Source of the DNA: Robiginitalea marina
GTDB taxonomy: Bacteria; Bacteroidota; Bacteroidia; Flavobacteriales; Flavobacteriaceae
Reading direction: 5' to 3'
Assembly: GCF_024006985.1 (NCBI RefSeq)
Contig: NZ_JAMXIB010000004.1
Span: 1-64,000, forward strand
Length of the DNA: 64,000 bases
Positions within the stretch are counted from its first letter, which is position 1, and each line of letters starts with the position of its first letter. Both the position numbers and the translations under genes were made by a program. The notes under the pieces were generated by a model that was given only the letters and a program-made list of their open reading frames with translations, searched no databases and had not been told where the DNA came from. Below, in pieces: positions 6,920 to 35,806 of the stretch.

Positions 6920-6936
6920 CCTTTCGTGATAAAGCG

Positions 6937-7398
6937 ATGGGAGCTTTGGAGGAATTTTGGGAGAGTCTCCTCGATGAGGCCTCATACAGCCTGTTTGCCA
7001 TCCACAGCAATGTAGAGGACCACGCCATGGCGTATGTCCTGAACGAGGCTTGTGGCCTCAGGCTGAAACGGACCCCCCGTGACCTGGAACTCGTGAAGCA
7101 GGGGGTGTTTACCGTATTTTCCTGGAAGGATGAAGCTTCGTTCAGGGAGTGGACCCTCTTCCGGAACCCGGGGAGGGATGCCATGGCAAACCCTTCTGAA
7201 GGGCTCTTTGCCGGGGAAACCACCCTGAAGCGGCCTTACCTGGTTCCCGAAAAGAAGGAGGTCGATTACTTCCTGAAACTCGAAGGGGAGGAGCAGGAAC
7301 TGAAAGTCCTTTCCCTCTTGCTGGCGCTCCCCAGGGTAATTACTGCCTACCGCCTTGACACTTCCAAACTAAAATCCAGATACAACCTTATTTACTAG
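6937..7398 (+). CDS. IPExxxVDY-family protein
   Basis: The 153-residue protein belongs to a small Bacteroidota-restricted family of unknown function named for a motif seen here as VPEKKEVDYFLKLEG (about 104-118). The family typically sits between rnc and pyk, as it does here (five bases before pyk). I chose ATG 6937 over an upstream GTG at 6892 because the upstream reading would run through the promoter element and the family begins close to FWES. No membrane segment or catalytic motif is visible. A link to RNA processing or glycolytic control can only be inferred from position. Confidence 0.8.
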   Translation: MGALEEFWESLLDEASYSLFAIHSNVEDHAMAYVLNEACGLRLKRTPRDLELVKQGVFTVFSWKDEASFREWTLFRNPGRDAMANPSEGLFAGETTLKRPYLVPEKKEVDYFLKLEGEEQELKVLSLLLALPRVITAYRLDTSKLKSRYNLIY

Positions 7399-7403
7399 AG
7401 CCT

Positions 7404-8846: not shown

Positions 8847-8851
8847 AGGCC

Positions 8852-9952: not shown

Positions 9953-9955
9953 ATT

Positions 9956-9963
9956 CAAATTTA
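9956..9963 (-). promoter_or_regulatory. -7 promoter element TAAATTTG facing dinB
   Basis: This is a perfect TAnnTTTG match on the minus strand, ending three bases from the dinB ATG. It lies back to back with the plus-strand element at 9967-9974. Confidence 0.4.
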
Positions 9964-9966
9964 CGG

Positions 9967-9974
9967 TATATTTA
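9967..9974 (+). promoter_or_regulatory. -7 promoter element TATATTTA facing the Rossmann gene
   Basis: This is one mismatch from consensus and ends four bases before the ATG at 9979. The divergent pair shares a 20-base intergenic region. Confidence 0.35.
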
Positions 9975-9978
9975 GAGG

Positions 9979-10683
9979 ATGGAAGGCGGAAAGAAAAAGG
10001 CCATCGTCCTCGGGGCTACAGGCCTTGTCGGCGGCATCCTCACACGGCGGCTCCTGGAGGACGGGCGTTACGGGGAGGTCTTGGTTTTTGCCCGACGTCC
10101 CATGGGGCTGGCCCATCCAAAGCTGAAGGTGGTCGTGGCCGACCTCCTGGAACTGGCGGGGCAGGAGACACAGTTCACGGCAGACGAAGTGTATTGCTGT
10201 GTGGGGACAACCCGGGCCAAAACCCCCGATAGGACCCTTTATGCTGCCGTGGATAAGGGGATCCCGGTTGCTGCGGCAAAACTGTGTGTGGCCAGGGGTA
10301 TCCCGTCACTGTTTGTGGTATCGGCCCTTGGGGCGGATACGGCGAGCCGGTTTTTTTACAACCGGGTCAAGGGCGAAATGGAGGAGGCGGTCTTGAAGCA
10401 GGGCCTGCCGCGGGCGGTTTTCCTGCAACCGTCCCTTATCGGGGGAGCCCGGAAAGAAAACCGTCCCGCGGAAAGGGTGGCCAGGGCGCTGATGGGTATT
10501 TTGGCCCCCCTGATGGTAGGCCCCCTGTCCAGGGCGCGCATAATTTCCGCATCGGATATCGCCGATGCCATGTTGTGGCTGGCCAACCATCCCGGGGGCG
10601 GGCCGCGCATAACTTCGGAGCACATCCGGGCCCTGGCCGGGCGGGAACAGTTGCGCCGGGCAGAAAAAGAATGTGATTCATGA
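9979..10683 (+). CDS. NAD(P)-binding Rossmann-fold oxidoreductase (HTATIP2/atypical SDR type)
   Basis: The 234-residue protein begins with the dinucleotide-binding motif GATGLVGGILTRRLL. A plausible YxxxK pair lies in FFYNRVKGEME, and YCCVGTTRAKTPDRT is typical of atypical short-chain dehydrogenases related to HTATIP2/TIP30. The substrate is unknown. The stop overlaps the start of the CYTH gene by four bases, so the two are translated together. No signal peptide is seen. Confidence 0.8.
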   Translation: MEGGKKKAIVLGATGLVGGILTRRLLEDGRYGEVLVFARRPMGLAHPKLKVVVADLLELAGQETQFTADEVYCCVGTTRAKTPDRTLYAAVDKGIPVAAAKLCVARGIPSLFVVSALGADTASRFFYNRVKGEMEEAVLKQGLPRAVFLQPSLIGGARKENRPAERVARALMGILAPLMVGPLSRARIISASDIADAMLWLANHPGGGPRITSEHIRALAGREQLRRAEKECDS

Positions 10684-11153
10684 TAGAAATCGAACGCAAA
10701 TTCCTGGTGAAGGATACCGGGTACCGCGAGGCGGCAACCTCCCGGATCCACCTGGTCCAGGGGTTTCTGAGCACTGACCCGGACCGGACGGTGCGCATCC
10801 GTTGCATCGGGGAACAGGGCTTTATCACCATCAAGGGAAAGACCTTCGGGCATGGGACGTCCCGGGCAGAGTGGGAGTACGATATCCCCCTGGAGGAGGC
10901 CAGGGAGCTGCTCTCGATCTGCCTTCCCGCGACCATAGAAAAAACCCGCTACCAGGTCCCCGTGGGCGAGCACACTTTCGAGGTAGATGAGTTCCTGAAG
11001 GAGAACCAGGGGCTGGTCCTGGCGGAAGTGGAACTGTCGGGGGAAGCGGAAGACTTTCCCCGTCCCTCCTGGTTGGGGGAGGAAGTGACCGGTAAACCAG
11101 AGTATTATAATTCCCAGCTCAGCCTGAACCCCTATTCAAAATGGAAAAAATAG
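10680..11153 (+). CDS. CYTH-domain protein (triphosphate-tunnel family)
   Basis: The 157-residue protein opens with the CYTH signature EIERKFLV (the ExExK motif) and continues with VRIRCIGEQGFITIKGK and EKTRYQVP, the alternating charged strands that line the phosphate tunnel. Bacterial single-domain members hydrolyse inorganic triphosphate or have unknown organic triphosphate substrates, so adenylate cyclase activity should not be assumed. It overlaps the genes on both sides (4 bases before, 13 bases after), pointing to one operon. Confidence 0.88.
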   Translation: MIEIERKFLVKDTGYREAATSRIHLVQGFLSTDPDRTVRIRCIGEQGFITIKGKTFGHGTSRAEWEYDIPLEEARELLSICLPATIEKTRYQVPVGEHTFEVDEFLKENQGLVLAEVELSGEAEDFPRPSWLGEEVTGKPEYYNSQLSLNPYSKWKK

Positions 11154-11626
11154 TTCGCATGCTTTCCTTTTTGGCCCTGTTGGCTTCCTGCAGGCCAGAC
11201 AACCCGCAACCTGTCGGCAGCGCCGATCCAGCCCCCGCCCCCGTTTCACAAACCATGGATTCCCTGCGCGCCAGGGGGTACCAGGTATTCGACTATGTGG
11301 ACCCGGAAACGGGCGATACCCTGGTGATGCAGCAGTACTTCATGGTTTTCCTCAAACGCGGGCCCAATCGCTCGCAGAGCCCCGGGGAGGCCGACAGCCT
11401 GCAGGGGTTGCACCTGGCGCATCTGGCGCGGATGTACCGGGAAGGGTTTGCGGACATTTCCGGACCTTTCGGCGATGAGGGGGAAATCCGCGGAATTACC
11501 ATCTACAATACCACAACCCTTGAGATGGCCGATAGCCTTGCAAACCTCGACCCCATGGTGCAGGCCGGGCGGCTGGCCATTGAGGTGCACCCCTGGTGGG
11601 CAGCCAAGGGGTATTCGTTGCGTTAG
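11141..11626 (+). CDS. Lipoprotein with YCII-related domain
   Basis: The 161-residue product has a short signal peptide ending in a lipobox (ALLASC, Cys17), so it is probably anchored in a membrane on the periplasmic side. Residues 50-160 resemble the YCII fold (FMVFLKRGP, LQGLHLAHLARM, GPFGDEGEIRGITIY, EVHPWWAAKG). YCII proteins are usually cytosolic, so an exported version is unusual. Its start lies within the end of the CYTH gene. It converges on pheS with two bases between the stops. Confidence 0.75.
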   Translation: MEKIVRMLSFLALLASCRPDNPQPVGSADPAPAPVSQTMDSLRARGYQVFDYVDPETGDTLVMQQYFMVFLKRGPNRSQSPGEADSLQGLHLAHLARMYREGFADISGPFGDEGEIRGITIYNTTTLEMADSLANLDPMVQAGRLAIEVHPWWAAKGYSLR

Positions 11627-11628
11627 GC

Positions 11629-12648
11629 TTACACGATGCTTTTGAATTGTTTGAGGAAGCGGAGGTCGTTTTCGCTCAACAGCCTGATGTCCGAAACCTG
11701 ATAAAGCAGCAGGGCGATCCGGTCAATCCCCATCCCAAAGGCAAACCCCGAGTATTCCCTGGAATCAATGCCACAGTTGTCCAACACGTTGGGGTCCACC
11801 ATCCCGCAGCCCATGATCTCCAGCCAGCCCGTGCCTTTGGTCATCCGGTAATCGGTTTCGCTTTCCAGCCCCCAGTAGACATCCACCTCAGCGCTGGGTT
11901 CGGTAAACGGGAAATAGGAGGGGCGCAGCCTGATCTTCGATTTTCCGAAAAGGGCCGTGGTAAAATACTGCAGGGTTTGCTTCAGGTCAGCAAACGAAAC
12001 GCCCTTATCGATATAGAGCCCCTCAACCTGGTGGAAAAAACAGTGGGAACGGGCAGAAATGGCCTCATTGCGGTAGACCCTTCCGGGGGAAATGGTCCGG
12101 ATCGGGGGGGTATGGTTTTCCATGTAACGGACCTGTACGGAGGAGGTGTGGGTCCGCAGCAATATATCCGGGTCAGTCTGGATGAAAAAGGTATCTTGCA
12201 TATCCCGGGCAGGGTGGTGCTCGGGCAGGTTCAGGGCGGTGAAATTATGCCAGTCGTCCTCGATTTCCGGTCCTTCGGAAACTGTAAAACCGATACTGGA
12301 AAAAATATCGATGATCTGATTGCGGACGATAGAAACCGGGTGCCGCGCCCCCAAAAGCAGGGGTTCCCCCGGTCGGGTAAGGTCCCCGAAAAGGTTTTCG
12401 GAGGGTTCCCCCGCCTGCAGTCCTTCCCTGAGGGTGGCTATTTTTTCCGTGGCGGCTACCTTCAGTTCATTTACTGCCTGGCCGAAATCTTTTTTCTGGT
12501 CGTTCGGGATGTTTTTCAACTCCTGGAAAAAGGTATTCAAAAGGCCTTTTTTCCCGAGGTATTTAATCCGGAAGGCTTCGATCGCCTCTGGGGTCTCTGC
12601 CGAAAAAGCCCTGACGGCTTCAATGTGTTCTCTCAGTTGGTCAATCAT
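11629..12648 (-). CDS. pheS: Phenylalanyl-tRNA synthetase alpha subunit
   Basis: This is the catalytic subunit of the PheST complex that charges tRNA-Phe. The 339 residues from ATG 12648 begin MIDQLREHIEAVRAF, the usual coiled-coil arm, and contain the class II motif 2 region (ISPGRVYRNE, HCFFHQVEGL) and the motif 3 region FGMGIDRIALL near the end. A longer reading to 12813 would cross the promoter element at 12697-12704. pheT is not adjacent, as is common in Bacteroidota. No T-box-like leader is recognisable, only a small GGGCT/AGCCC hairpin in the leader. Confidence 0.95.
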   Translation of the reverse strand: MIDQLREHIEAVRAFSAETPEAIEAFRIKYLGKKGLLNTFFQELKNIPNDQKKDFGQAVNELKVAATEKIATLREGLQAGEPSENLFGDLTRPGEPLLLGARHPVSIVRNQIIDIFSSIGFTVSEGPEIEDDWHNFTALNLPEHHPARDMQDTFFIQTDPDILLRTHTSSVQVRYMENHTPPIRTISPGRVYRNEAISARSHCFFHQVEGLYIDKGVSFADLKQTLQYFTTALFGKSKIRLRPSYFPFTEPSAEVDVYWGLESETDYRMTKGTGWLEIMGCGMVDPNVLDNCGIDSREYSGFAFGMGIDRIALLLYQVSDIRLLSENDLRFLKQFKSIV

Positions 12649-12696
12649 GGTACTGGCCGGTTTGGCATATGCTGGGCTTACAGCCCTGTGCTCGGG

Positions 12697-12704
12697 CAAA
12701 GGTA
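12697..12704 (-). promoter_or_regulatory. -7 promoter element TACCTTTG for pheS
   Basis: This is a perfect TAnnTTTG match, 48 bases upstream of the pheS ATG. A small hairpin lies in the predicted leader. Confidence 0.55.
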
Positions 12705-12767
12705 AAACTTTTCCCCGGCTCCCCGCCCATCCCCTGGCAATGCGTTGGGGTCCGGGGAAGGCAATTT

Positions 12768-14636
12768 TCAAGGGACTACATCTGCGACGTTTTCCTGAAC
12801 CCAGGCCACGCACTGGGCGAAATCCCTGAAGATATGGGTTTCCGGCACCAGGTCTGGGATAATGTCGATACGCTCCATCATATATCGGGGTTGCTGCATG
12901 ATGTTTACCAGCAACACGGTAATCTTCTTGCTTTCCAGGTCTCTGAGCACCTCTTCCATGGCATAGAGCCCTGATTGGTCCATGTAAGGGACCCGGCCCA
13001 GGCGGATAATCACTGTGGTGGCGGTTTTCGGGATTTGTTTGGCCAACTGCTGGAATTCCGTGGTGGTGCCGAAAAACAAAGGGCCTTTAAGGTGCTTGAT
13101 GAATACTTCCTCTTCCAGCCTCGAGGGGAAGATTTTTTCATCGGGCCAGGAATGTTCCCGCTTCAGGGGGAATACATCGGACTGTATTGCCGTGAGGTCC
13201 CCGATTTTTTTCATAAACATCAGGGAGGCAATGACCAGGCCCACACCAACCGCATACACCAGGTTCCAGAAGGTTGAAAGGAGTATCACCACAATCATGA
13301 TCAGTACTTCGGAACTTATTTTGAAGGGACCCAAACGGATGTCGCGCGGGAGGGTGGCAATGGCTTTCAACCCCTTGTAATCCATTACGCTTATCCCTAC
13401 CGTGATCAGGATCCCTGCAAGGACGGCAGCCGGAATTTGGGAAGCCACCGGCCCAAGGACCAGCAAGATGAGCAGCAGGAGGACGCCTGCAGTCATCCCG
13501 GAAAGCCGGGTTACCCCCCCGGCTTTGATGTTCACCACGGTGCGGATGGTCGCCCCGGCCCCGGGGAGGCCCCCGAAAAGGGCAGCTACACTATTGCCTA
13601 TGCCCTGGCCTATAAGTTCCCTGTTTGGGTTATGGGTGGTGCGGGTCATGTTGTCGGCGACCACCGAAGTCAGGAGGGAATCTATGGCCCCCAGCAGGGC
13701 CAGGGTAAAGGCGGTAAAAAGGTAGGGGGTCACCGCAGAAGCGCTGAACCCCGTGAACATGCTGAACTCGGGAATAGGGAAGCCCTCGGGGATTGACGCA
13801 ATGGGCCGGTATTCGAGCCCCGCGGCATAGGCAACTCCTGAAACCAGAATCAGGGCCACCAGGGTGCTGGGGACTGTCGTGGTGATTTTTTTGAACCCGT
13901 AAATAACCGCAATGGTAATGGCACAGAGCAGGAATTCCAGCCAGCGGATATGGGACAGGGCCCTGGGAAGCGACCGGATGGCCCCGATCACCCCCGAGGC
14001 GGCAGCGCCGGCAACGGTTTTGGATTCTTTCATAATGTCTTCCTCCGTAATGGTTTCAGCGCGTCGGATCGTTTCCCCGAGGTGATCCACCCTGAGGAGG
14101 TCATCCCCGGTTTCCTCCGTAAGGATTTTCTCCAGCAGGACTTCCTGGGCATAAGGCCTGAACCGGCTGACAAATTCTGCATCTTCTTCGGGGTAATAGC
14201 CCAGGGCGGGCAGCAGCTGGGTGATGATGATGATCAGCCCGATGGCAGTCATGAACCCCGAAACGACGGGATAGGGAATGTAGCGGATGTATTTGCCCAT
14301 TTTCAGGAACCCCAGGCCAACCTGCATCAGTCCGGCCAGCAGGAAGACCATCAGGATGCCCGGCAGGGCCTGGCTTACCACCCCGTTGTTCAGGGCGATG
14401 AGTTCTGCAATAAGCACCATGCTCACGGCCGTCATCGGGGCGGTGGGCCCTGAAATCTGGGTGGGGGTACCCCCGAAAAGCGCCGCAAAAAAACTGAGAA
14501 AAATGGCCCCGTACAGCCCTGCACTCGGGCCCAGGCCGGAGCTTGCCCCAAAGGCAAGGGCCAGGGGGAGGGCTACAATCCCGGCGGTAATACCGCCAAG
14601 GAGATCGCCCCTGAAATGCGCAAAAAAGTGTTTCAT
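12768..14636 (-). CDS. SulP-family anion transporter with STAS domain (first copy)
   Basis: The 622-residue inner-membrane protein has the SulP hallmark near its start (GDLLGGITAGIVALPLALAF), more than ten hydrophobic helices, and a C-terminal STAS domain (about 520-620, with RLGRVPYMDQSGLYAM). A charged insertion of about 60 residues lies between helices in the first half (EVLLEKILTEETGDDLL and following). SulP proteins carry sulfate, bicarbonate or other anions. Proximity to carbonic anhydrase favours bicarbonate but does not prove it. The start at 14636 is supported by a perfect promoter element just upstream. It is transcribed apart from the carbonic anhydrase operon. Confidence 0.88.
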   Translation of the reverse strand: MKHFFAHFRGDLLGGITAGIVALPLALAFGASSGLGPSAGLYGAIFLSFFAALFGGTPTQISGPTAPMTAVSMVLIAELIALNNGVVSQALPGILMVFLLAGLMQVGLGFLKMGKYIRYIPYPVVSGFMTAIGLIIIITQLLPALGYYPEEDAEFVSRFRPYAQEVLLEKILTEETGDDLLRVDHLGETIRRAETITEEDIMKESKTVAGAAASGVIGAIRSLPRALSHIRWLEFLLCAITIAVIYGFKKITTTVPSTLVALILVSGVAYAAGLEYRPIASIPEGFPIPEFSMFTGFSASAVTPYLFTAFTLALLGAIDSLLTSVVADNMTRTTHNPNRELIGQGIGNSVAALFGGLPGAGATIRTVVNIKAGGVTRLSGMTAGVLLLLILLVLGPVASQIPAAVLAGILITVGISVMDYKGLKAIATLPRDIRLGPFKISSEVLIMIVVILLSTFWNLVYAVGVGLVIASLMFMKKIGDLTAIQSDVFPLKREHSWPDEKIFPSRLEEEVFIKHLKGPLFFGTTTEFQQLAKQIPKTATTVIIRLGRVPYMDQSGLYAMEEVLRDLESKKITVLLVNIMQQPRYMMERIDIIPDLVPETHIFRDFAQCVAWVQENVADVVP

Positions 14637-14653
14637 GCCGTAACCGTCCTTAT

Positions 14654-14661
14654 CAAAATTA
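14654..14661 (-). promoter_or_regulatory. -7 promoter element TAATTTTG for the first SulP gene
   Basis: This is a perfect TAnnTTTG match, 17 bases before the ATG at 14636. It rules out the longer reading from 14678. Confidence 0.55.
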
Positions 14662-14735
14662 AGGCAATTTAGAAACAATCCGGTTCAGCGGCCTTTTATT
14701 TTGCCTCTCCGGGCTATGGGCGGGCCAAAAGTCGG

Positions 14736-15362
14736 TCAGAGGAAGGTCACCTTCCCGTTGCTCAGGTCGTACATGGCCCCGACAATGGCAATTTCGCCCA
14801 CCTCTTCCATGTCGTACAGGATCTTGCTTTGGGACCGGATGTCGTCAATGGCCATTTTTACGTTCATTTCGGCCACGGCATCGACGAATTTCAGGTTTTG
14901 GGAGGTCCGGAGTTTTTCCTCTTTGGGCTTTTTCACCGCAGCCACCGCCGGTTCGATTTTATGGATCAGGGAAGTCAGGTGCCCGAGCCGGGCATGGTCG
15001 CAGGCGCCTTTGATCGCCCCGCAGCTGGTATGCCCAAGGACCACCAGCAACTTGCTTCCCGCAAGCTTGCAGGCGAACTCCATGCTCCCCAGGATATCCT
15101 GGTTGACGAAATTCCCGGCGATCCGGATGCTGAAGATGTCTCCCAGTCCCTGGTCGAAGACCAGTTCGGCCGAAACCCTTGAATCGATGCAACTCAGGAT
15201 GGTGGCAAATGGGAACTGGCCGTCAGCGGTTTCGTTCACCTGCTCCAGCAGGTTCCGGTGAGCTTTCAGGTTGTTCTGGAACCGTTTGTTCCCCTCTTTC
15301 AAAAACTGCAGGGCTTTTTCAGGGGTCATGGTGGCCTGTGTTTCTCGGGTATGTGCTTTCAT
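14736..15362 (-). CDS. Beta-class carbonic anhydrase
   Basis: This zinc enzyme interconverts CO2 and bicarbonate. The 208-residue protein shows the beta-class ligands Cys58 and Asp60-Arg62 (LSCIDSR) with His111 and Cys114 (LGHTSCGAIKGA). No signal peptide is visible, so it should act in the cytoplasm. It follows a SulP gene after only 12 bases and is almost certainly co-transcribed with it. The pair would import bicarbonate and equilibrate it with CO2 for carboxylases. Confidence 0.94.
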   Translation of the reverse strand: MKAHTRETQATMTPEKALQFLKEGNKRFQNNLKAHRNLLEQVNETADGQFPFATILSCIDSRVSAELVFDQGLGDIFSIRIAGNFVNQDILGSMEFACKLAGSKLLVVLGHTSCGAIKGACDHARLGHLTSLIHKIEPAVAAVKKPKEEKLRTSQNLKFVDAVAEMNVKMAIDDIRSQSKILYDMEEVGEIAIVGAMYDLSNGKVTFL

Positions 15363-15374
15363 GGGATGTCGGGG

Positions 15375-16958
15375 TTAGGTGGTATTTTTTTGCTGGAGGT
15401 TGAAAAATTCCAGGTAGCTCATGGGGTTTTTAACCGAGCCCTTGTCTGAAATGAGCAGGACGTCTATGTTCCGGTCCCGGGCCTTAAAGGAAAAATCATC
15501 CAGGATTTCGATAATATCGTAATCCAGGTAACGGGTACTGCGCACGTCCAGCTCGAGGAAGGTGTTTTTGGGAAGCCGGTCCAGTTCATTCAAAATGGCC
15601 CCTTTGTTAAAGAACGTGACTTCCTCGGCCAGGGTCATCCGCACCCTGTGGACCCCGTTGCTTTTATCCAGGATATGCAGGAAGTGGCTGTTCTGGTAAC
15701 TTTTGACCAGGATTACCACAATGCCCACGCCCAGGCCCAGGCCAATACCCACCAACAGGTCGGTGAACACGATCCCCCCAACAGTGGCCGCGAAAGGGAC
15801 AAATTGTTTCCAGCCCAGGGAGTACATGTGGCGGAACAGCGAAGGCTTGGCCAGTTTGTAGCCCACCAGGAAGAGCACTGCAGCCAGGACTGAAAGGGGG
15901 ATCATATTCAGCAGCCGCGGGATGAGGATCACGGAGACCAGCAGGAGGAAGCCGTGAATGATGGCCGACGCCTTGGTGCGCCCCCCTGACTGGATATTTG
16001 CCGAACTGCGGACGATGACCTGGGTTACGGGCAGGCCGCCGATCAGGCCCGACAACATGTTCCCGGCCCCCTGGGCCAGGAGTTCCCGGTTGGTGGGGGT
16101 CACCCGTTTCATGGGGTCGATCTTGTCGGTTGCTTCCACGCACAGGAGGGTTTCCAGGCTGGCAACCAGGGCGATGGTAAAGGCAGTGATCCAGATTTCA
16201 GGCTGCCCGATCACCCCGAAATTCGGAAAGCTGAACTGCGCCAGGAAGGAAGACGCGTCTTCGGGGATGGGTACGTTCACCAGGTGCTCGGCAGCGATCC
16301 CCAGGGTTTTATTTCCTTTGGTGAGGGCATGGAAAAGGATCCCCAGGACCACGGCGACCAGGGGTCCCTGGACAAGCTGGAACACCCGGTGTTTTTTGGA
16401 GAGGACCCGGTCCCAGAGGATAAGGATCCCAAGGCCCACAAGGGCAATCAGGGTGGCGCCCGGGGAGATGTTCTGGAACGCCCTGAGGATCTCCGAAAAG
16501 GTGGTTTCCCCATCGACCTGGAAAAAGGCGAAGTCACCTTCCGGGTCTGCGTCATACCCGAAGAAATGGGGGATTTGCTTCAGGATAATGATGATGCCTA
16601 TACCGGTGAGCATCCCCTTGATGACCGAGGAGGGGAAATAATAGCCGATAATGCCTGCTTTCAGAACGCCGAACAGCAATTGGATGGCCCCCCCCAACAC
16701 CACGGCCAGGAGGAAGTTCTGGTAGCCCCCAAGGGTGCCGATGGCCGTCAGCACAATGGCGGCCAGGCCCGCGGCCGGGCCGCTTACCCCAACTGCCGAG
16801 CCGCTCAGGGCTCCCACCACGATGCCCCCAACGATCCCGGCAATAAGGCCTGAAAAGAGCGGGGCCCCGCTGGCCAGCGCAATCCCCAGGCAGAGTGGGA
16901 GGGCCACAAAGAAGACGACAATACTGGCAGGCAGGTCCTGCTTCAGATGCTTGAACAT
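15375..16958 (-). CDS. SulP-family anion transporter (second copy, paired with carbonic anhydrase)
   Basis: The 527-residue inner-membrane transporter begins KHLKQDLPASIVVFFVALPL, typical of the SulP subgroup often found next to carbonic anhydrase. It has about 12 hydrophobic helices and a short STAS-like tail (about 430-520, ELDVRSTRYLDYDIIEIL). It lacks the long hydrophilic insertion of the first copy and is about 95 residues shorter. A 102-residue acidic membrane protein is encoded 60 bases upstream and carbonic anhydrase 12 bases downstream. Bicarbonate is the most likely substrate by context. Confidence 0.9.
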   Translation of the reverse strand: MFKHLKQDLPASIVVFFVALPLCLGIALASGAPLFSGLIAGIVGGIVVGALSGSAVGVSGPAAGLAAIVLTAIGTLGGYQNFLLAVVLGGAIQLLFGVLKAGIIGYYFPSSVIKGMLTGIGIIIILKQIPHFFGYDADPEGDFAFFQVDGETTFSEILRAFQNISPGATLIALVGLGILILWDRVLSKKHRVFQLVQGPLVAVVLGILFHALTKGNKTLGIAAEHLVNVPIPEDASSFLAQFSFPNFGVIGQPEIWITAFTIALVASLETLLCVEATDKIDPMKRVTPTNRELLAQGAGNMLSGLIGGLPVTQVIVRSSANIQSGGRTKASAIIHGFLLLVSVILIPRLLNMIPLSVLAAVLFLVGYKLAKPSLFRHMYSLGWKQFVPFAATVGGIVFTDLLVGIGLGLGVGIVVILVKSYQNSHFLHILDKSNGVHRVRMTLAEEVTFFNKGAILNELDRLPKNTFLELDVRSTRYLDYDIIEILDDFSFKARDRNIDVLLISDKGSVKNPMSYLEFFNLQQKNTT

Positions 16959-27469: not shown

Positions 27470-28219
27470 ATGGAACATATCGTGTTTATTACCGGGGCCA
27501 GTAGCGGGATTGGCCGGGCTACTGCCCTGCTCCTGGCGGAAAAGGGATGCCGCATCGTCGCTTGCGGCCGAAGGGAGAGCCGCCTGGCCGCCTTGAAGCA
27601 ACAGTGGGGGGAGCAGATCCACACCCTTTGTTTTGATGTGCGCGACCGGAAGTCGGTCCGCGAGGCTGTCGATTCGCTGCCTCCCGGGTTCCGGGAGGTG
27701 GATGTGCTGATCAACAATGCGGGCAATGCCCACGGTCTGGATCCCTTCGATCAGGCCAGCCTCGATGACTGGGATGCCATGATCGACATCAATGTCAAGG
27801 GCCTGCTCTATGTGACCAAAGCCCTCCTGCCATCCTTATTGAAGGATGGGCGGGGCCACATCATCAATATTGGCTCCACCGCCGGCAAGGAAGTCTATCC
27901 GAAGGGGAATGTCTACTGTGCCAGCAAGCATGCCGTGGATGCCATTAACCAGGCGTTGCGCATGGACCTGAACGCACACGGCATCAGGGTGGGGGCGGTG
28001 AACCCCGGCCTGGTGGAGACCGAATTCAGCCAGGTCCGCTTCAAAGGCGATGAAGCCCGGGCCGCCCAGGTGTACAAGGGATTCCGTCCGCTCACCCCTG
28101 AAGACATCGCGGAGATCATCCATTTTGTCATTACCCGGCCCCCTCATGTGAATATTGCCGACCTGGTGGTCATGCCGACCGACCAGGCCAGTAGTACCCT
28201 CGTGCGAAAAGAGACATGA
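27470..28219 (+). CDS. Short-chain dehydrogenase/reductase (YdfG-like)
   Basis: The 249-residue classical SDR has the cofactor loop TGASSGIGRATAL, the NNAG motif (VLINNAGNAHG), a catalytic Ser (NIGSTAGKEVYP) and YCASK. Its overall similarity is to YdfG, the NADP-dependent 3-hydroxy acid dehydrogenase that also reduces malonic semialdehyde. I chose ATG 27470; a TTG at 27455 overlapping the preceding stop would add five residues. Its stop overlaps the AlbA_2 gene start. Confidence 0.88.
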   Translation: MEHIVFITGASSGIGRATALLLAEKGCRIVACGRRESRLAALKQQWGEQIHTLCFDVRDRKSVREAVDSLPPGFREVDVLINNAGNAHGLDPFDQASLDDWDAMIDINVKGLLYVTKALLPSLLKDGRGHIINIGSTAGKEVYPKGNVYCASKHAVDAINQALRMDLNAHGIRVGAVNPGLVETEFSQVRFKGDEARAAQVYKGFRPLTPEDIAEIIHFVITRPPHVNIADLVVMPTDQASSTLVRKET

Positions 28220-29352
28220 TCAACAAGCGCCTTCTGATAAAAAACCTCCTGGCCCACAACGACGAAAACAGCTTTTACGACAAAAAGCGGTTCCTCGACA
28301 TCAGCCAGAAGGAAGGGAAGGCCAAGTTCCTGAAGCACGTCTGTGCCCTGGCCAACAGCAACCCGGCCAACCGTTCCTACATGGTGATCGGGGTGGAGGA
28401 TGCCGATAATGAAATCAACGGGGTCGATTTTTTTGACGACAGCAAAATCCAGAACCTGGTTAATGCCTACCTCGACAACCCTCCCCTGATCTCTTATGAA
28501 AACGTGCTCTTCCCGCACCTGCCCGAGGGGAAGGTGGTGGGCCTGGTCACGATCCGGTCATCCGGCCGCATCTGTTCCCTGAAGCGCAATATCTGGAAGT
28601 ACTACGGAGGCGCTGTCTTTTTCCGGGAAGGAAGCATCAGCATGCCGAGGAATTTCGACAGCACCCTGAGGGACGTCAATTCTGCGACGGTTGGGGAAAT
28701 TGAGCAGCATGCGCGCAACAATATCGAGCTCACCCTGGACGGGGTCATCGATTTCATCAACCATCGCCATCGCCACCTCGACAGCCATTACAAGGTTTTC
28801 AAGGAGCAATTCGTGGTCTGTTGGTGCGGGAACCGGAAAAAAGTGAAGGAATCGGTTTATTATTCCCGGGTAGACATTGAACTGATCAACGAGCAGGTAA
28901 AACTTTTCTATTCGGCCCTCGATGAAGTTTCCATTTCGTGGAATGAAGATTCCTTCAGCATAACGGAGTATGTCTATCTGGGCCTTGGGGACCAAAAGCG
29001 CTACTATCCGATGGAGGAGGTTTCCATCCTTTTTGCCGATAACGGAACCTACCAGATCCAGGGCAAACTGGTTTTCGAACCGCCCCAGTACGACCGCAAA
29101 ACCCTGTACCATATCCTAAACGCCAACAAGGCCCTTTTGAAGAAACTCCAGCGCGGGGGTAGCCTCCGGCCGGCCGAAAAGGCCGACCTGCGGCGTTTTC
29201 CGGCGACCTCCCTGATCTGCTTCCTGAATGGTTTTGAAGAAGCCCAGGAGGTGATGCAGGAGGCGCGGAAATGGCTCAAGGAGACCGACCCCGAGGCCTA
29301 CCTGTCGCTGAAGGAAGCCCTCAGGATCCTCCGGAAGGTACGCTATAGCTAA
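28216..29352 (+). CDS. AlbA_2 (Schlafen-like) domain protein
   Basis: The 378-residue protein begins with an AlbA_2 domain (about 15-160). The core is visible as FLDISQKEGKAKFLKHVCALANSN (quoted in part), MVIGVEDADNEING and the ending GAVFFREGS. Such domains occur in putative DNA- or RNA-binding and nuclease proteins. Residues 180-378 are an uncharacterised C-terminal region. Translation is coupled to the SDR gene by a four-base overlap, which is unexpected for a putative nucleic-acid-binding protein. It converges on the amylosucrase gene with a four-base overlap. Confidence 0.75.
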   Translation: MINKRLLIKNLLAHNDENSFYDKKRFLDISQKEGKAKFLKHVCALANSNPANRSYMVIGVEDADNEINGVDFFDDSKIQNLVNAYLDNPPLISYENVLFPHLPEGKVVGLVTIRSSGRICSLKRNIWKYYGGAVFFREGSISMPRNFDSTLRDVNSATVGEIEQHARNNIELTLDGVIDFINHRHRHLDSHYKVFKEQFVVCWCGNRKKVKESVYYSRVDIELINEQVKLFYSALDEVSISWNEDSFSITEYVYLGLGDQKRYYPMEEVSILFADNGTYQIQGKLVFEPPQYDRKTLYHILNANKALLKKLQRGGSLRPAEKADLRRFPATSLICFLNGFEEAQEVMQEARKWLKETDPEAYLSLKEALRILRKVRYS

Positions 29353-31295
29353 ATGAATCGGGAAATCCAGAGCAATTCGAAGGGAGCCGTTTCCAGAAGG
29401 CCGCTCCTGACCTGCCTTGTGCTGCCGTCGATCAGGTTGTGGTAGGCCCCTTCCCTGACATAGCCCAGTGCGGCAAGCCAGGAAGCGTTGATGACCTGCG
29501 GTTGATCGTCGAAGTTCGCAATCACCAGCAGGCCTTCCCCCGTATCGCCCTTGCGTTCAAAAACAAACAAGTGGTCATTCCCCACCGGGTGCAGGGCCTG
29601 GTTCGACCGGTCTGCCAGAACGGGGTATTGCTTGCGCAACCGGATCAGGTGCTGAAGGCCGGAGTAAATTTGTGAGGCAGGGGAATGTTCCCGGCCCAGT
29701 TGTTCAACCGCATCCCAGTCGTGCAGGGGTCGGTTCATCCAGCGGCTGTCACCGGCCCGCTTCGGGTCCTTCATATAGGAATAATCGTTCAGCATGCCGA
29801 TCTCATCCCCGGCATAGACCAGCGGGATCCCCGGGGAGGCCAGGACAATGCCGTACAGCAGGAGGATTTTGGAAATGGCCCTGTGGACCTCCGCCTCATC
29901 GCCCTGTTCCATACCCTTTTCGAGGCCGAGCAGGGAGGCGGTACTCCCCGTAATCCGGCCATCCCCGGTGGTGGGGTTGTACATAAACACCGCCCCTTTG
30001 GCAGGCGACCACGAAAGCCGTTGCCCAAAGTAATCGAGCAGGAAGCGGCGATGTGCCCCGGGGTCCCACCCCAGGGCGGCAATGTGGGCATTGTCGAACC
30101 CCAGGCCGATATCGTCGTGGCAGCGGACGTAGTTGATCCAGGTCCCATCGGAGGGTTTTCGGGGCATATGGTTGAGGCTGCGCTGCAGCAGCAGCGTTTT
30201 ACGGGTGGCCACCGAATTCCACAGGCAGGCCATGAAGGTCGCGTGATAGGCGATCTCGCATTCATTTCCCTCCAGGGCCCCTTCCCCAAAATACTTCACG
30301 ATTTCATGTGGGGCCACGATAGCTTCCGCCAGGATGGCCACTCCCGGGGCCACCACCTGCAGGCAAAGCCGGAAAAGGGCGATTAGCCGGTGGGCCTCCG
30401 GAAGGTTCTGGGAATCGGTCCCCGGTTTTTTCCACAGGAACGCCAGGGCATCGAAACGGACCACATCCACCCCCTTATCGCAGAGGGCAAGGAGGTTTTC
30501 CAGCATGCTCAGGAAGACCCTGGGGTTAGTGTAGTTCAGGTCCCACTGGTACGAGTTGAATACCGTCATCACCCACCGCTGCATTTGTGCATCGTAGGTA
30601 AAATTCCCGGGCGAGGTTTCAGGGAACACCTCCGGGAGGCTCTGTTCAAACAGGTCAGGGATGCTGCGATCGGGATAGGTGTAATAAAAGCCCTGGAATT
30701 CCGGGTCGCCTTCCCTGGCCTTCACAGCCCAGGGGAATTCGTCCGAGGTGTGGTTTACCACAAAATCGAGCATCAGGCAAATCCCTTTTTGCCTGAATTT
30801 TTTGGTCAGCCTGGCCAGGTCCTGCTCGCTTCCGTAAGCCGGGTCCACTTCCGTGTAGCTGTTGACGGCATATCCCCCGTCATTGGGCCCGGAAGGCCGC
30901 CTGGTAATGGGCATCAGGTGCAGGAAATTAATGCCAAGGGCCTCGAAATAAGGCAACTTTTCCTCTAACCCCTTCAGGTCGCCGCTAAAGCGGTCCACAT
31001 AGAGTTGCATGCCCACCCAGTGTTCGGACTGGTACCAGTTCCCCTGATTCAGGCGCTCCAGGTCGAGGCGTTGCAGCTCAACGGGCCGCAAACGGAAGCG
31101 CTCCTGCAGCAGTTGCATAAGCCCGATGAAGGTTTCCCGGTGGTGAGATTCGGGGTAGAGGGAAAAGAAGAGGTCTTTCAGCAGGGTGGCATTGGCCGCC
31201 AACCGTTTGGCGAACAGGGCCTCCCTGGCACTTGCAGGGAGGGTGCCTCCCAGGGTTTCGCCGGCCAGCAGCCGGTGCAGGGCAGCCTGGTTCAT
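29349..31295 (-). CDS. Amylosucrase (GH13 subfamily 4)
   Basis: The 648-residue enzyme uses sucrose to lengthen an alpha-1,4-glucan and releases fructose. The catalytic residues are recognisable: nucleophile Asp282 (VDVVRFDALAF), acid/base Glu324 (AILAEAIVAP) and the transition-state Asp395 (YVRCHDDIGLGF). The length and residue spacing closely match Neisseria amylosucrase. The helical N-terminal domain (1-95) is also present. There is no signal peptide, so it acts in the cytoplasm. It overlaps by four bases the fructokinase gene upstream, whose product would phosphorylate the released fructose. Sucrose hydrolase or trehalulose-forming relatives are possible alternatives. Confidence 0.9.
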   Translation of the reverse strand: MNQAALHRLLAGETLGGTLPASAREALFAKRLAANATLLKDLFFSLYPESHHRETFIGLMQLLQERFRLRPVELQRLDLERLNQGNWYQSEHWVGMQLYVDRFSGDLKGLEEKLPYFEALGINFLHLMPITRRPSGPNDGGYAVNSYTEVDPAYGSEQDLARLTKKFRQKGICLMLDFVVNHTSDEFPWAVKAREGDPEFQGFYYTYPDRSIPDLFEQSLPEVFPETSPGNFTYDAQMQRWVMTVFNSYQWDLNYTNPRVFLSMLENLLALCDKGVDVVRFDALAFLWKKPGTDSQNLPEAHRLIALFRLCLQVVAPGVAILAEAIVAPHEIVKYFGEGALEGNECEIAYHATFMACLWNSVATRKTLLLQRSLNHMPRKPSDGTWINYVRCHDDIGLGFDNAHIAALGWDPGAHRRFLLDYFGQRLSWSPAKGAVFMYNPTTGDGRITGSTASLLGLEKGMEQGDEAEVHRAISKILLLYGIVLASPGIPLVYAGDEIGMLNDYSYMKDPKRAGDSRWMNRPLHDWDAVEQLGREHSPASQIYSGLQHLIRLRKQYPVLADRSNQALHPVGNDHLFVFERKGDTGEGLLVIANFDDQPQVINASWLAALGYVREGAYHNLIDGSTRQVRSGLLETAPFELLWISRFI

Positions 31296-32245
31296 TGCAG
31301 GGCAGCCTTGAGTTGTTCCTGGTCGGGCAGGGATGGGATCGCCCCGAACCGGGTGGTGGTCAGGGCCCCGGCAACATTGGCGATTCGTACGTTCTCTGCC
31401 ATCAGTTCCTGGTTTTTTACCGCTTCAAACAGGTCCTTTTCCCTGGAGAGGAGGTACAGGAGGCAACCGATGAATGCGTCCCCTGCCCCTGTGGTATCCA
31501 CAGGTTTTATGGCAATGCTGGGAATGGTTTCCTGCCCGTTGGGGGTGCTGAGGTATGTACCCCCGGCACCCAGGGTAATGACAATGGTTTCCGCACCCCT
31601 GGCATGCAGGGCGTCACAGGCCCTGACCAGGTCTGTTTCCCCGCTCAGCAGCCGGGCCTCTTCTACCGAAAACTTGCAAAGCTGTGCCTTCTCCACAAAA
31701 CGGAGGCTTTTTTTTACGAACTCCTTTTCCCGGGTTTTCCATAGGTCGTGACGGAAATTAGGGTCGAAGCTGATGAAGGCTTCGTGAATGAGGCCATCAT
31801 AAAAATAGCGGCTGTAGGCCGATTCCAGCGGCCCCCCAAGCAGGGCGGTGGCAGCCCCGAGGTGCAGCATGTTGCCTTCGAAGGCCTTGCCCGACCGCTC
31901 CTGGTAGGCCAGTTCCCGGTCGGCACCCCGGCTGAATACAAAATCCCGTTCCCCGTCTTCGGCTATGGATACAAAGGCCAGGGTGGTGAAGGTCGGGCTG
32001 CGCTGCACAAGCAGGGTTTCCACCCCGTTTTCGGTCAGCACCTCCAAAAGGAAGTCCCCGAAGGGGTCTTCCCCTATGCATCCGACAAAGGCACTTTTTC
32101 CGCCCAGTTTTGCAATGGCACAGGCGACGTTTGCCGGTGCGCCGCCGGCTTTTTTGGTAAAGACGGTGGCGTGTCCCAGGTCATTGCCCTGGTTTTCCGC
32201 CACAAAATCGATCAGCAATTCCCCTACACAGAATATTTTTTTCAT
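31292..32245 (-). CDS. Fructokinase-like PfkB sugar kinase
   Basis: The 317-residue kinase starts KKIFCVGELLIDFVAENQGND, contains the substrate glycine pair (KKAGGAPANVACAIAKLGG) and the C-terminal signature DTTGAGDAFIGCLL. These are typical of bacterial fructokinases. Coupling to amylosucrase makes fructose the expected substrate, giving fructose 6-phosphate for glycolysis. The upstream region holds a GGGCAT/ATGCCC hairpin and two AAnCGnTT palindromes that may be operators. Confidence 0.88.
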   Translation of the reverse strand: MKKIFCVGELLIDFVAENQGNDLGHATVFTKKAGGAPANVACAIAKLGGKSAFVGCIGEDPFGDFLLEVLTENGVETLLVQRSPTFTTLAFVSIAEDGERDFVFSRGADRELAYQERSGKAFEGNMLHLGAATALLGGPLESAYSRYFYDGLIHEAFISFDPNFRHDLWKTREKEFVKKSLRFVEKAQLCKFSVEEARLLSGETDLVRACDALHARGAETIVITLGAGGTYLSTPNGQETIPSIAIKPVDTTGAGDAFIGCLLYLLSREKDLFEAVKNQELMAENVRIANVAGALTTTRFGAIPSLPDQEQLKAALQ

Positions 32246-32271
32246 GGTCTTCCCGCTCTTTTCGCTAATGG

Positions 32272-32290
32272 GGGCATGGATCTGATGCCC
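32272..32290. promoter_or_regulatory. GGGCAT/ATGCCC inverted repeat in the fructokinase leader
   Basis: A perfect six-pair inverted repeat with a seven-base spacer lies 27 bases upstream of the fructokinase ATG. It could be an operator or a leader hairpin. No function is assigned. Confidence 0.35.
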
Positions 32291-32296
32291 ATAACT

Positions 32297-32310
32297 TAAA
32301 ACCGTTTCCC
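32297..32310. promoter_or_regulatory. Possible LacI-type half-conserved operator
   Basis: The core AACCGTTT fits AAnCGnTT, the centre of many LacI/GalR-family operators, but the flanking TG and CA positions match only partly. A second such core (AACCGGTT, inside the perfect palindrome AAACCGGTTT) lies at 32411-32420. Both lie between the sucrose operon and the divergent phosphatase gene. Confidence 0.3.
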
Positions 32311-32491
32311 CATACTGACGCCAAACCGCGGGTATACTGAACTGGTCTTGTTGCCATGCAGGGCCTCAGCACGGTTTTCCGGAGTTAAATCGGAGCGAAA
32401 TGTACTGAGAAAACCGGTTTAAACCCAAAAAATACGACGGAATCTGGGGCCGTTTCGGCTGGGGGCCAATGGTTCCCTGCCCCGATTTTCC

Positions 32492-32499
32492 TAGCTTTG
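32492..32499 (+). promoter_or_regulatory. -7 promoter element TAGCTTTG
   Basis: This is a perfect TAnnTTTG match, 53 bases before the phosphatase ATG at 32553. The rest of the 32246-32552 gap holds only the palindromes described separately. Confidence 0.45.
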
Positions 32500-32552
32500 G
32501 GGCAGCAATTATAGACCTGGCCCGAATCGGACACGTAGGGGGCCTGAAGTGC

Positions 32553-33287
32553 ATGGCAGAAATGAGGACACTGGTTATTGGCGACATACACGGGGGCCTG
32601 AAGGCCCTGCAAGACGTCCTTGAAAAGGTGGAACCGGGTAAAAACGACCGGTTCATCTTCCTGGGCGATTATGTGGATGGCTGGAGCGAGGCGGCCGAAA
32701 CCATCGATTTCCTGATGGGGTTCCGCCGCAAGCACCATTGCGCCCTCCTGAGGGGCAACCACGATGACCTGTGCCTGCAATGGCTGTCGGAAGGGGTGGA
32801 GCACGAGCTTTGGCTGCAGTCTGGCGGCGCCGCCACCCGGGAGTCTTACCGGGGTCTGGGGGAGGCAACGCGTAAAGGGCATGCCCGCTTCCTGGAATCC
32901 CTGGAAGATTACTGCCTCGACGCGGAAAACCGGTTATTCCTGCACGCAGGCTTCACCAACCTTAAAGGGGTGGGGCACGAGTACTTCAGAAAGACCTTTT
33001 ACTGGGACCGCACCCTTTGGGAAACGGCCCTTGCCCTGAACCCCGGGCTGTCACAGGACGATCCGTTGTATCCCCCCCGCCTGAAACTTTACCGGGAAAT
33101 CTATATCGGGCATACCCCGGTTTCCCGCCTGGGGCTCGACACCCCCTACCGGGCGGCGAATGTCTGGAACGTAGATACCGGTGCGGCCTTCAAAGGCCCC
33201 CTGTCCGTAATGGACATACATACCAAAGAGGTTTGGCAAAGCGAACCGGTATTTGCATACTATCCCGGGGAAAAGGGCCGGAATTAG
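32553..33287 (+). CDS. Metallophosphoesterase of the PPP Ser/Thr phosphatase type
   Basis: The 244-residue protein has the three PPP motifs in order: GDIHGG, GDYVDG and RGNHDD, followed by later metal-binding histidines (FLHAGF, YIGHTPV). Targets may be phosphoproteins or small molecules such as dinucleoside polyphosphates. ATG 32553 is chosen; ATG 32562 is nearly as good. A longer reading to 32469 would cross the promoter element. It converges on the HhH protein gene. Confidence 0.87.
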   Translation: MAEMRTLVIGDIHGGLKALQDVLEKVEPGKNDRFIFLGDYVDGWSEAAETIDFLMGFRRKHHCALLRGNHDDLCLQWLSEGVEHELWLQSGGAATRESYRGLGEATRKGHARFLESLEDYCLDAENRLFLHAGFTNLKGVGHEYFRKTFYWDRTLWETALALNPGLSQDDPLYPPRLKLYREIYIGHTPVSRLGLDTPYRAANVWNVDTGAAFKGPLSVMDIHTKEVWQSEPVFAYYPGEKGRN

Positions 33288-34252: not shown

Positions 34253-35806
34253 TCAGAGGTCAAATTTGATCCCCTGGGCCAATGGGAGTTCCCTGCCGTA
34301 ATTAATGGTGTTGGTCTGCCGGCGCATGTAGATCTTCCAGGCATCAGACCCCGATTCCCGGCCGCCGCCTGTTTCCTTTTCCCCTCCAAAAGCCCCGCCA
34401 ATTTCGGCTCCCGAGGTCCCGATGTTGACGTTGGCGATGCCGCAATCACTACCCGCAACCGACAGGAAGGTTTCGGCTTCCCTGAGGTTATTGGTCATAA
34501 TGGCCGAGGACAGCCCCTGGCGCACCCCATTTTGGAGGGCGATGGCATTTTCAACCCCGCCTTTGTATTTCAAAAGGTAGAGGATGGGGGCGAAGGTTTC
34601 GTGCTGGACGATCTCATAGTGGTTTTCGGCTTCGGCAATGGCCGGCTTCACGTAGCAGCCGCTTTCGTATCCCGGGCCGTCCACAAGACCGCCGGGCACA
34701 ATGAGGCGCCCTCCCTCGGCCACCACCTTTTCAAGCGCTGCCTGGTACATACCCACTGCATCTTTGTCGATCAGGGGGCCAACGTGGTTCTTTTCATCCA
34801 GGGGGTTCCCGATCCGCAATTGCCCATAGGCAGCAACCAGGGCTTCCCTGACCTGGTCGTAAACCGCTTCGTGCACGATCAGGCGGCGGGTGGAGGTGCA
34901 TCGCTGCCCGCAGGTCCCGACGGCCCCGAATACCGCGCCGATCACCGTCATTTTGATGTCGGCATCCGGCGTTACGATAATGGCGTTGTTCCCACCGAGT
35001 TCCAGCAGGGTTTTCCCCAGGCGGGCCCCAACGGCCTGCGCCACGATTTTGCCCATGCGGATGGAACCTGTGGCCGACACCAGGGGGACGCGCTCATCGT
35101 GGGTCATGTATTCCCCTACCTGGTAATTCCCCGTAATCAGGCAGGAAATCCCTTCCGGGAGCCCATTGGCCCTGAAGACTTCCGCGGCAATATGCTGGCA
35201 GGCAATCCCGCACAGGGGGGCCTTCTCTGAAGGCTTCCAGATACAGACATCCCCGCAAACCCAGGCCAGGGCAGTATTCCAGCTCCACACGGCTACCGGG
35301 AAATTGAAGGCCGAGATGATCCCTACCGGGCCAAGGGGGTGGTATTGTTCGTACATGCGGTGCAGCGGGCGTTCGGAATGCATGGTCAATCCGTGAAGTT
35401 GTCGGGAAAGGCCCACGGCAAAATCACAGATGTCGATCATTTCCTGTACCTCCCCAAGGCCTTCCTGGTACGATTTTCCCATTTCGTAGGAAACCAGCTT
35501 CCCCAGGGGTTCCTTAAGCTCGCGCAGCCGCTCCCCGAACTGCCTTACCACTTCCCCCCTTTTCGGGGCAGGGATTGTCCGCCAGGCCTTGAAAGCCTCC
35601 ATGGCGGTCTGCACTACCCGCTCATAGTCTTCCCGGGTGGTGGCCTGTACCCGGCCGATCAGGGCCCCGTCCACCGGGGACCGGGATTCCAGGATTTCCC
35701 CGTTTGCAAAACTGTTGTCGCCCGTGGACGACCCCGGGTTCAGTTCCTGAATCCCCAACGCCTTTAGGGCGTTATCCATGCCGAAAGCAACTGCCACATC
35801 TGTCAT
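34253..35806 (-). CDS. ALDH7-type aldehyde dehydrogenase (piperideine-6-carboxylate/aminoadipate semialdehyde type)
   Basis: The 517-residue NAD-dependent enzyme is strikingly like human antiquitin (ALDH7A1) across its length, for example PAPKRGEVVRQFGERLRE, GIISAFNFPVAVWSWN and GRESGSDAWKIYMRR. The catalytic Cys lies in GTCGQRCTST and the Glu in LLELGGNNAI. The expected reaction is oxidation of alpha-aminoadipate semialdehyde in lysine breakdown. The hydroxyanthranilate dioxygenase gene 184 bases upstream suggests joint amino acid catabolism. A TAATTTTG promoter lies upstream. Confidence 0.88.
   Translation of the reverse strand: MTDVAVAFGMDNALKALGIQELNPGSSTGDNSFANGEILESRSPVDGALIGRVQATTREDYERVVQTAMEAFKAWRTIPAPKRGEVVRQFGERLRELKEPLGKLVSYEMGKSYQEGLGEVQEMIDICDFAVGLSRQLHGLTMHSERPLHRMYEQYHPLGPVGIISAFNFPVAVWSWNTALAWVCGDVCIWKPSEKAPLCGIACQHIAAEVFRANGLPEGISCLITGNYQVGEYMTHDERVPLVSATGSIRMGKIVAQAVGARLGKTLLELGGNNAIIVTPDADIKMTVIGAVFGAVGTCGQRCTSTRRLIVHEAVYDQVREALVAAYGQLRIGNPLDEKNHVGPLIDKDAVGMYQAALEKVVAEGGRLIVPGGLVDGPGYESGCYVKPAIAEAENHYEIVQHETFAPILYLLKYKGGVENAIALQNGVRQGLSSAIMTNNLREAETFLSVAGSDCGIANVNIGTSGAEIGGAFGGEKETGGGRESGSDAWKIYMRRQTNTINYGRELPLAQGIKFDL

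What the first reader, a model, noticed from the sequence alone, without database searches (positions are those of the whole stretch)
29349..32245. Two-gene sucrose-to-glucan operon
Amylosucrase and fructokinase overlap by four bases, so the cell can turn sucrose into alpha-glucan and fructose 6-phosphate without losing the glucosyl energy. No sucrose transporter, glycogen synthase or SusCD pair is seen in the window, so sucrose may be taken up elsewhere or made internally as a compatible solute.
Basis: partly seen in the sequence, partly recalled or inferred. Interest (0 to 1): 0.5.

Follow-up and report, generated by a model that had tools for sequence, protein, structure and literature searches.

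The report
Sucrose-to-glucan enzyme and fructokinase operon
A Robiginitalea bacterium carries a two-gene unit that probably turns sucrose into a starch-like polymer plus usable fructose phosphate; it resembles the ordinary sucrose-use operons of its phylum, but without a transporter gene of its own.

Summary
A 648-aa amylosucrase-type GH13 enzyme and a 317-aa PfkB kinase lie on the minus strand with a 4-base ATGA overlap. The closest named genomes are Robiginitalea. The catalytic and polymerisation-linked residues checked match Neisseria amylosucrase, except one subsite +2 arginine that is proline, as in Deinococcus enzymes. The kinase lies directly upstream in 29 of 30 Flavobacteriaceae loci examined.

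Internal sucrose synthesis is not supported: no sucrose synthase or sucrose-phosphate synthase was found in this genome. Uptake from elsewhere is favoured. In 17 of 20 Bacteroidota loci outside the family a transporter lies just upstream of the amylosucrase; in 0 of 30 Flavobacteriaceae loci. This genome has one SUT-like transporter, beside glgE, maltokinase and glgB genes. A GlgA-like protein is also elsewhere, so its absence from the window means little.

Enzyme activity, kinase substrate, transporter specificity and flux are inferred. A frk-ams pairing is already described in cyanobacteria, so this is a new member of a known kind, of low interest.

The parts
31292..32245 (-). First gene of the operon: PfkB-family sugar kinase, probably fructokinase (317 aa)
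   Evidence: PF00294 194.5 bits; best solved relative is called fructokinase, E 8.3e-51; best NCBIfam match is fructokinase PRK09434 but below its cut-off, 198.2 of 450 bits
29349..31295 (-). Second gene: amylosucrase-type GH13 enzyme (648 aa); D282 nucleophile, E324 acid/base, D394 by mapping to NpAS
   Evidence: PDB amylosucrases E 5.6e-160; residue map; residue counts over 49 relatives; PF00128 150.2 bits
31292..31295 (-). ATGA overlap of kinase stop and amylosucrase start
   Evidence: sequence; -4 spacing in 13 of the 27 loci measured
32246..32468 (-). Upstream region in which the operon promoter should lie; none recognised
   Evidence: sigma-70-type scan of 29200-32700: 0 found, 1.2 expected; TANNTTTG pattern: no minus-strand match here
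28216..29352 (+). Convergent neighbour (Schlafen AlbA_2 + DUF5929), overlaps the end of the amylosucrase gene by 4 bases; bounds the unit, not part of it
   Evidence: PF19351 and PF04326; coordinates; neighbour in most Flavobacteriaceae loci

Best explanation
It is a two-gene operon for intracellular use of sucrose that comes from outside the cell. The amylosucrase attacks sucrose through a covalent glucosyl-enzyme on D282, passes the glucosyl group to the end of an alpha-1,4-glucan chain and releases fructose. The kinase made from the same message phosphorylates fructose to fructose 6-phosphate for glycolysis. The glucan joins the cell's glycogen pool, where the GlgB branching enzyme encoded elsewhere can add branches. 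Sucrose most likely enters through a transporter encoded elsewhere; the leading candidate is the genome's one SUT-like MFS protein at G000:C22:67.6-69.1 kb. The pair looks like a transporter-less form of a transporter-(kinase)-amylosucrase operon that is common among amylosucrase-bearing Bacteroidota. Shown: the genes, their order and overlap, residue conservation, comparative gene order, no match for the synthesis genes. Inferred: both catalytic activities, the kinase substrate, co-transcription, transporter specificity, glucan branching, and that the transporter was lost rather than never gained.
For: Best solved relatives are amylosucrases, Deinococcus ones first. D139, H182, R280, D282, E324, H393, D394, R416, F418, R447 and R518 equal the Neisseria residues; F417 and R446 of that enzyme are tied to polymerisation and the +2 position is arginine or proline in amylosucrases (PMC6949346, passages). 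Kinase directly upstream in 29 of 30 Flavobacteriaceae loci; those 29 amylosucrases form one clade (SH-aLRT 100). Transporter upstream in 17 of 20 Bacteroidota loci outside the family, 0 of 30 within it. Profile of 10 amylosucrase-linked SUT proteins finds a relative in 30 of 32 amylosucrase-bearing Flavobacteriaceae at E 1e-20, one of them in this genome, which groups with the linked L142 and L144 proteins (100/100). No sucrose synthase or SPS match. GlgB over its cut-off, GlgE and GlgA-like protein present. Both genes under purifying selection by a rough dN/dS.
Against: No activity has been measured. The kinase is far below the curated fructokinase cut-off (198.2 of 450 bits). No NCBIfam model shown for the amylosucrase reached its cut-off and none is an amylosucrase model (best 25 of 33 shown). 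The candidate transporter sits among glgE, maltokinase, glgB and an alpha-glucosidase gene and its close orthologues (700 bits or more) occur in 4 of 24 amylosucrase-bearing and 23 of 275 amylosucrase-lacking genomes, so they do not track the operon. L083 has an amylosucrase without the kinase. The amylosucrase tree is rooted only at its midpoint, so loss of the transporter is not proved. No promoter was recognised.
Confidence: 0.7

Rival explanations
1. The enzyme is in practice a sucrose hydrolase, like SUH/SuxB of Xanthomonas: it gives glucose and fructose, and the kinase then phosphorylates fructose. No glucan is stored.
For: Solved sucrose hydrolases share the fold and match well (3cze, 449.6 bits, E 1.4e-133). 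The sux locus shows an amylosucrase-fold hydrolase working with a SuxC transporter (PMC1790865, passages).
Against: Amylosucrases score higher (537 to 489 bits against about 450); F418 and R447 equivalents of the polymerisation-linked residues are present in all 30 Flavobacteriaceae proteins aligned. I did not compare pocket residues with 3cze.
Confidence: 0.15
2. Sucrose is made inside the cell as a compatible solute and the operon recycles it, as proposed for Synechococcus PCC 7002 and methanotrophs.
For: The same frk-ams pair ends the spsA-sppA-frkA-amsA operon of Synechococcus PCC 7002 (PMC11046441, passage).
Against: PF00862: no match in this genome, while the control Synechococcus elongatus rings. 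TIGR02472: none of 32 amylosucrase-bearing genomes over the cut-off; 7 of 32 have weak matches of at most 71 bits against 576, none of them among the 10 Robiginitalea. The S6PP match is a Cof-type HAD protein.
Confidence: 0.04
3. Sucrose is split outside the cell by the GH32 protein; the kinase mainly serves imported fructose, and the amylosucrase acts mostly as a maltodextrin-remodelling transglucosidase.
For: A GH32 protein with N- and C-terminal domains and a lipoprotein-like start (by eye) is encoded at C47:29 kb. The one SUT-like transporter is among glucan genes.
Against: Kinase and amylosucrase stay adjacent in 29 of 30 loci, which fits fructose arising from this enzyme. Relatives outside the family place a transporter beside the amylosucrase (17 of 20).
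Confidence: 0.08

Closest known systems
spsA-sppA-frkA-amsA operon of Synechococcus sp. PCC 7002 (PMC11046441, passages seen; the primary paper was not seen)
   Same: fructokinase gene directly before amylosucrase gene; same proposed saving of ATP by putting the glucosyl group on glycogen
   Different: no sucrose-phosphate synthase or sucrose-phosphate phosphatase gene beside the pair, and no SPS match in this genome
Deinococcus geothermalis amylosucrase and relatives (PDB 3ucq, 9isa, 7esh, 4ays; species names recalled)
   Same: best solved matches; proline at the +2 position
   Different: the Flavobacteriaceae proteins form a clade of their own among Bacteroidota sequences (Deinococcus was not in the tree)
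Neisseria polysaccharea amylosucrase (PDB 1g5a)
   Same: catalytic and most substrate-binding residues
   Different: R226 is P221 here; no fructokinase operon compared
sux locus of Xanthomonas campestris (PMC1790865, passages)
   Same: cytoplasmic amylosucrase-fold enzyme fed by a sugar transporter of the inner membrane
   Different: there TonB receptor, transporter and regulator genes sit in the locus and the enzyme is orthologous to a hydrolase; here none is in the locus and a kinase is
Transporter-(kinase)-amylosucrase loci of other Bacteroidota
   Same: kinase-amylosucrase order in 12 of 20
   Different: transporter upstream in 17 of 20 there, in none of 30 Flavobacteriaceae loci

Membership tests
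Amylosucrase (GH13, EC 2.4.1.4) | GH13 catalytic residues and amylosucrase substrate-binding residues | tested here: met
   equivalents of NpAS D144, H187, R284, D286, E328, H392, D393, R415, R446, R509 present; R226 is P, which amylosucrases also have
Amylosucrase (GH13, EC 2.4.1.4) | Phe417 and Arg446, conserved in microbial amylosucrases and linked to polymerisation | tested here: met
   F418 and R447, in 30 of 30 Flavobacteriaceae proteins aligned
Amylosucrase (GH13, EC 2.4.1.4) | closer to amylosucrases than to sucrose hydrolases | tested here: inconclusive
   by score yes (537 to 489 bits against about 450); pocket residues of the hydrolase not compared, no tree with both
Amylosucrase (GH13, EC 2.4.1.4) | makes alpha-1,4-glucan from sucrose | not testable with these tools
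   needs an assay
PfkB fructokinase | PfkB domain | tested here: met
   PF00294, 194.5 bits
PfkB fructokinase | curated fructokinase cut-off (NF006957) | tested here: not met
   198.2 of 450 bits, though it is the best match; filed as a PfkB kinase, probably acting on fructose
PfkB fructokinase | phosphorylates fructose | not testable with these tools
   needs an assay
spsA-sppA-frkA-amsA sucrose solute operon | frk directly before ams | tested here: met
spsA-sppA-frkA-amsA sucrose solute operon | sucrose-phosphate synthase and phosphatase genes | tested here: not met
   not in the locus; no SPS match in the genome; S6PP match is a Cof-type HAD protein
Transporter-(kinase)-amylosucrase uptake operon of Bacteroidota | SUT-like or sodium:solute transporter gene upstream of ams | tested here: not met
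   0 of 30 Flavobacteriaceae loci, 17 of 20 outside the family

The most novel reading that the evidence does not exclude
In one Flavobacteriaceae clade the sucrose-to-glucan pair became separated from its uptake gene and fixed among housekeeping genes, so that a single SUT-like transporter beside the GlgE/maltokinase/GlgB genes feeds both maltose and sucrose into one glycogen pool. Building glycogen from sucrose without ADP-glucose would then be a core trait of Robiginitalea.
Probability: 0.25. Interest if true: 0.4.

Novelty: new member of a known kind. Interest (0 to 1): 0.2.

Why it matters
If true, these Flavobacteriaceae can bank the glucosyl energy of sucrose directly as glycogen, and all 10 Robiginitalea genomes held have the gene for it. 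The family also offers a natural comparison between loci with and without a transporter, and a set of Deinococcus-like amylosucrases to assay. The chemistry and the frk-ams pairing are already known, so the gain is in distribution and gene arrangement.

Tried and rejected
Internal sucrose synthesis: not supported. The C22 SUT-like transporter as a gene strictly linked to amylosucrase: not supported; close orthologues (700 bits or more) in 4 of 24 amylosucrase-bearing and 23 of 275 amylosucrase-lacking genomes of one draw. At the looser E 1e-60 a SUT-like match occurs in 22 of 24 and 173 of 275, but related genomes are not independent, so I rest nothing on it. A SUT-like gene beside a malic-enzyme-like gene (recognised by eye), in 16 of the 20 transporter loci fetched, looked like the missing transporter, but it also occurs in an amylosucrase-lacking genome (L202), and this genome has no second SUT-like match. 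Promoter: nothing recognised on the operon's strand; terminator-like sites were found (9, against 4.7 expected), none just past the end of the amylosucrase gene on its strand.

Rows left out: amylosucrase-bearing Flavobacteriaceae known at the end numbered 33 (32, and G529); 30 were examined for gene order, not G133, G156 or G529. Of 23 amylosucrase-bearing genomes outside the family, 20 were fetched, not G461, G598 or G672. L143 was missed by my gene caller, so it is absent but counted. Some loci were shorter than 20 kb (L047 9.0, L082 12.5, L077 16.5 kb). My greedy gene caller made antisense false genes (for example family f32) and missed the kinase in L049 and L052, which tblastn then found.
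Full report
Observation. The kinase gene (31292-32245) and the amylosucrase gene (29349-31295) run on the minus strand and share four bases, ATGA. The end of the amylosucrase gene overlaps by four bases with the convergent Schlafen/DUF5929 gene, and a divergent phosphoesterase gene lies upstream. The unit is therefore two genes long. GC content (0.59 and 0.57) lies within that of four neighbours (0.535-0.595); the kinase has a somewhat lower third-position GC (0.667 against 0.71-0.75). Nothing points to recent arrival.

Host. The two named genomes with close copies are Robiginitalea aestuariiviva (69% identity) and R. myxolifaciens (67%). The window is on contig C44 of a 3.25-Mb assembly scored 99.99% complete. 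All 10 genomes held of the genus have the gene, as do 24 of 299 drawn from the family and 27 of 395 drawn from the phylum.

The enzyme. The 18 PDB sequences that match below E 1e-120 are amylosucrases or their sucrose-hydrolase relatives. Mapped to the Neisseria enzyme, D139, H182, R280, D282, E324, H393, D394, R416, F418, R447 and R518 are the same residues, while R226 becomes P221. A review says that the +2 position is arginine or proline in microbial amylosucrases and that Phe417 and Arg446 may aid polymerisation (PMC6949346, passages). Over 49 aligned relatives the three catalytic residues and H182, D139, R280, H393, R447 and R518 never change; R416 is lysine in 2 of 30 Flavobacteriaceae, F418 is tyrosine in 2 of 19 others, and the P221 position is P in 29 and L in 1 of 30 Flavobacteriaceae, P in 12 and R in 7 of 19 others. 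None of the 25 NCBIfam matches shown (of 33) reached its cut-off or was an amylosucrase model. The comparison with sucrose hydrolases is by score only.

The kinase. It is a PfkB protein whose best solved relative is called fructokinase. It stays far below the curated fructokinase cut-off (198.2 of 450 bits), so its substrate rests on best match and on the partner gene.

Conservation. The kinase is directly upstream on the same strand in 29 of 30 Flavobacteriaceae loci; the exception, L083, has a 45-46% identical amylosucrase. The flanking genes are much the same in most of them. The 29 amylosucrases form one clade (SH-aLRT 100; quick tree), and L083 falls elsewhere. Against the nearest relative, dN/dS is about 0.22/1.72 for the amylosucrase and 0.20/1.38 for the kinase; dS is near saturation, so this only says that selection is purifying.

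What is missing, and where it is. Sucrose synthesis: PF00862 finds nothing in this genome, with Synechococcus elongatus ringing as control. TIGR02472 finds nothing over its cut-off in 32 amylosucrase-bearing genomes; 7 of 32 have weak matches of at most 71 of 576 bits, none of them Robiginitalea. One S6PP match passes the Pfam cut-off, but its protein is over the cut-off of the Cof-type HAD model and below both sucrose-phosphatase ones. Glucan genes lie elsewhere: at C22 a GlgB over its cut-off, a GlgE, a putative maltokinase just below its cut-off (351.6 of 375.05 bits) and an alpha-glucosidase-like protein; at C47 a 517-aa GlgA-like protein below the curated glgA cut-off (234.7 of 328.45 bits). 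So the absence of glycogen synthase from the window is not informative. A GH32 protein is encoded at C47.

Transport. Outside Flavobacteriaceae, in 17 of 20 Bacteroidota loci a transporter gene lies on the same strand upstream of the amylosucrase, gene centres within 3.0 kb: 10 SUT-like MFS and 7 sodium:solute symporters. Within the family it is 0 of 30. Twelve of the 20 also have a PfkB kinase beside the amylosucrase and one has a ROK kinase. The simplest reading is that the pair is a transporter-less form of such an operon; the midpoint-rooted tree does not prove the direction. A profile of 10 amylosucrase-linked SUT proteins finds a relative in 30 of the 32 amylosucrase-bearing Flavobacteriaceae given to the search (none in G006, which is 74% complete, and G175). 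This genome has one, beside glgE, and it falls on the same side of a 100/100 branch as the linked proteins L142 and L144. Against it as a dedicated sucrose importer: its neighbours are glucan genes, the locus with SusC-, SusD- and LacI-like genes (by eye) and a GH65 gene has no SUT-like gene of its own, and close orthologues do not track the operon. It may serve both sugars.

Comparison with what is known. A review describes frkA-amsA as the end of an spsA-sppA-frkA-amsA operon in Synechococcus PCC 7002, with the same energy argument, and shows putative amylosucrases of the FCB group in a tree (PMC11046441, passages). The Xanthomonas sux locus couples the SuxC transporter to an enzyme orthologous to a sucrose hydrolase (PMC1790865, passages). 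Five searches (amylosucrase with fructokinase and operon; with Flavobacteri; with Bacteroidetes and transporter; with SPS and methanotroph; Robiginitalea with sucrose) listed no paper whose title or abstract start describes this pair in Flavobacteriaceae. The library holds open-licence papers only, and I saw listings and passages, not whole texts.

Verdict. A real, conserved and ordinary sucrose-use operon. The enzyme assignment is strong, the kinase assignment fair, uptake elsewhere likely with an uncertain transporter, and internal sucrose synthesis unlikely.

Noticed in passing
L060 (G000:C22:53000-72900), 6485-16109: SUT-like MFS, GlgE, putative maltokinase, GlgB and an alpha-glucosidase-like gene in one row: a GlgE-type glucan cluster in a Bacteroidota genome, also seen in other Robiginitalea (L197, L198).
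   Followed up: partly
L057 10931-11803 (G000:C44, about 94.9-95.8 kb): A 290-aa protein that holds only the starch-synthase catalytic domain PF08323, next to pantoate-beta-alanine ligase; too short for a whole glycogen synthase.
   Followed up: no
window 12768-16958: Two sulfate-permease-family transporters with a beta-type carbonic anhydrase gene between them, possibly a bicarbonate uptake set (the bicarbonate reading is recalled).
   Followed up: no
window 28216-29352: Schlafen AlbA_2 domain fused to DUF5929, a neighbour of the operon in most Flavobacteriaceae loci examined; function unknown.
   Followed up: no
window 34253-35806: L-piperidine-6-carboxylate dehydrogenase over its curated cut-off (823.2 of 730 bits), near the operon in most relatives; suggests a lysine catabolic step.
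   Followed up: no
L182-L188, L190-L196, L200, L201 (other Flavobacteriaceae): A lone SUT-like transporter gene beside a malic-enzyme-like gene (by eye) in 16 loci, also in amylosucrase-lacking L202; substrate unknown.
   Followed up: partly
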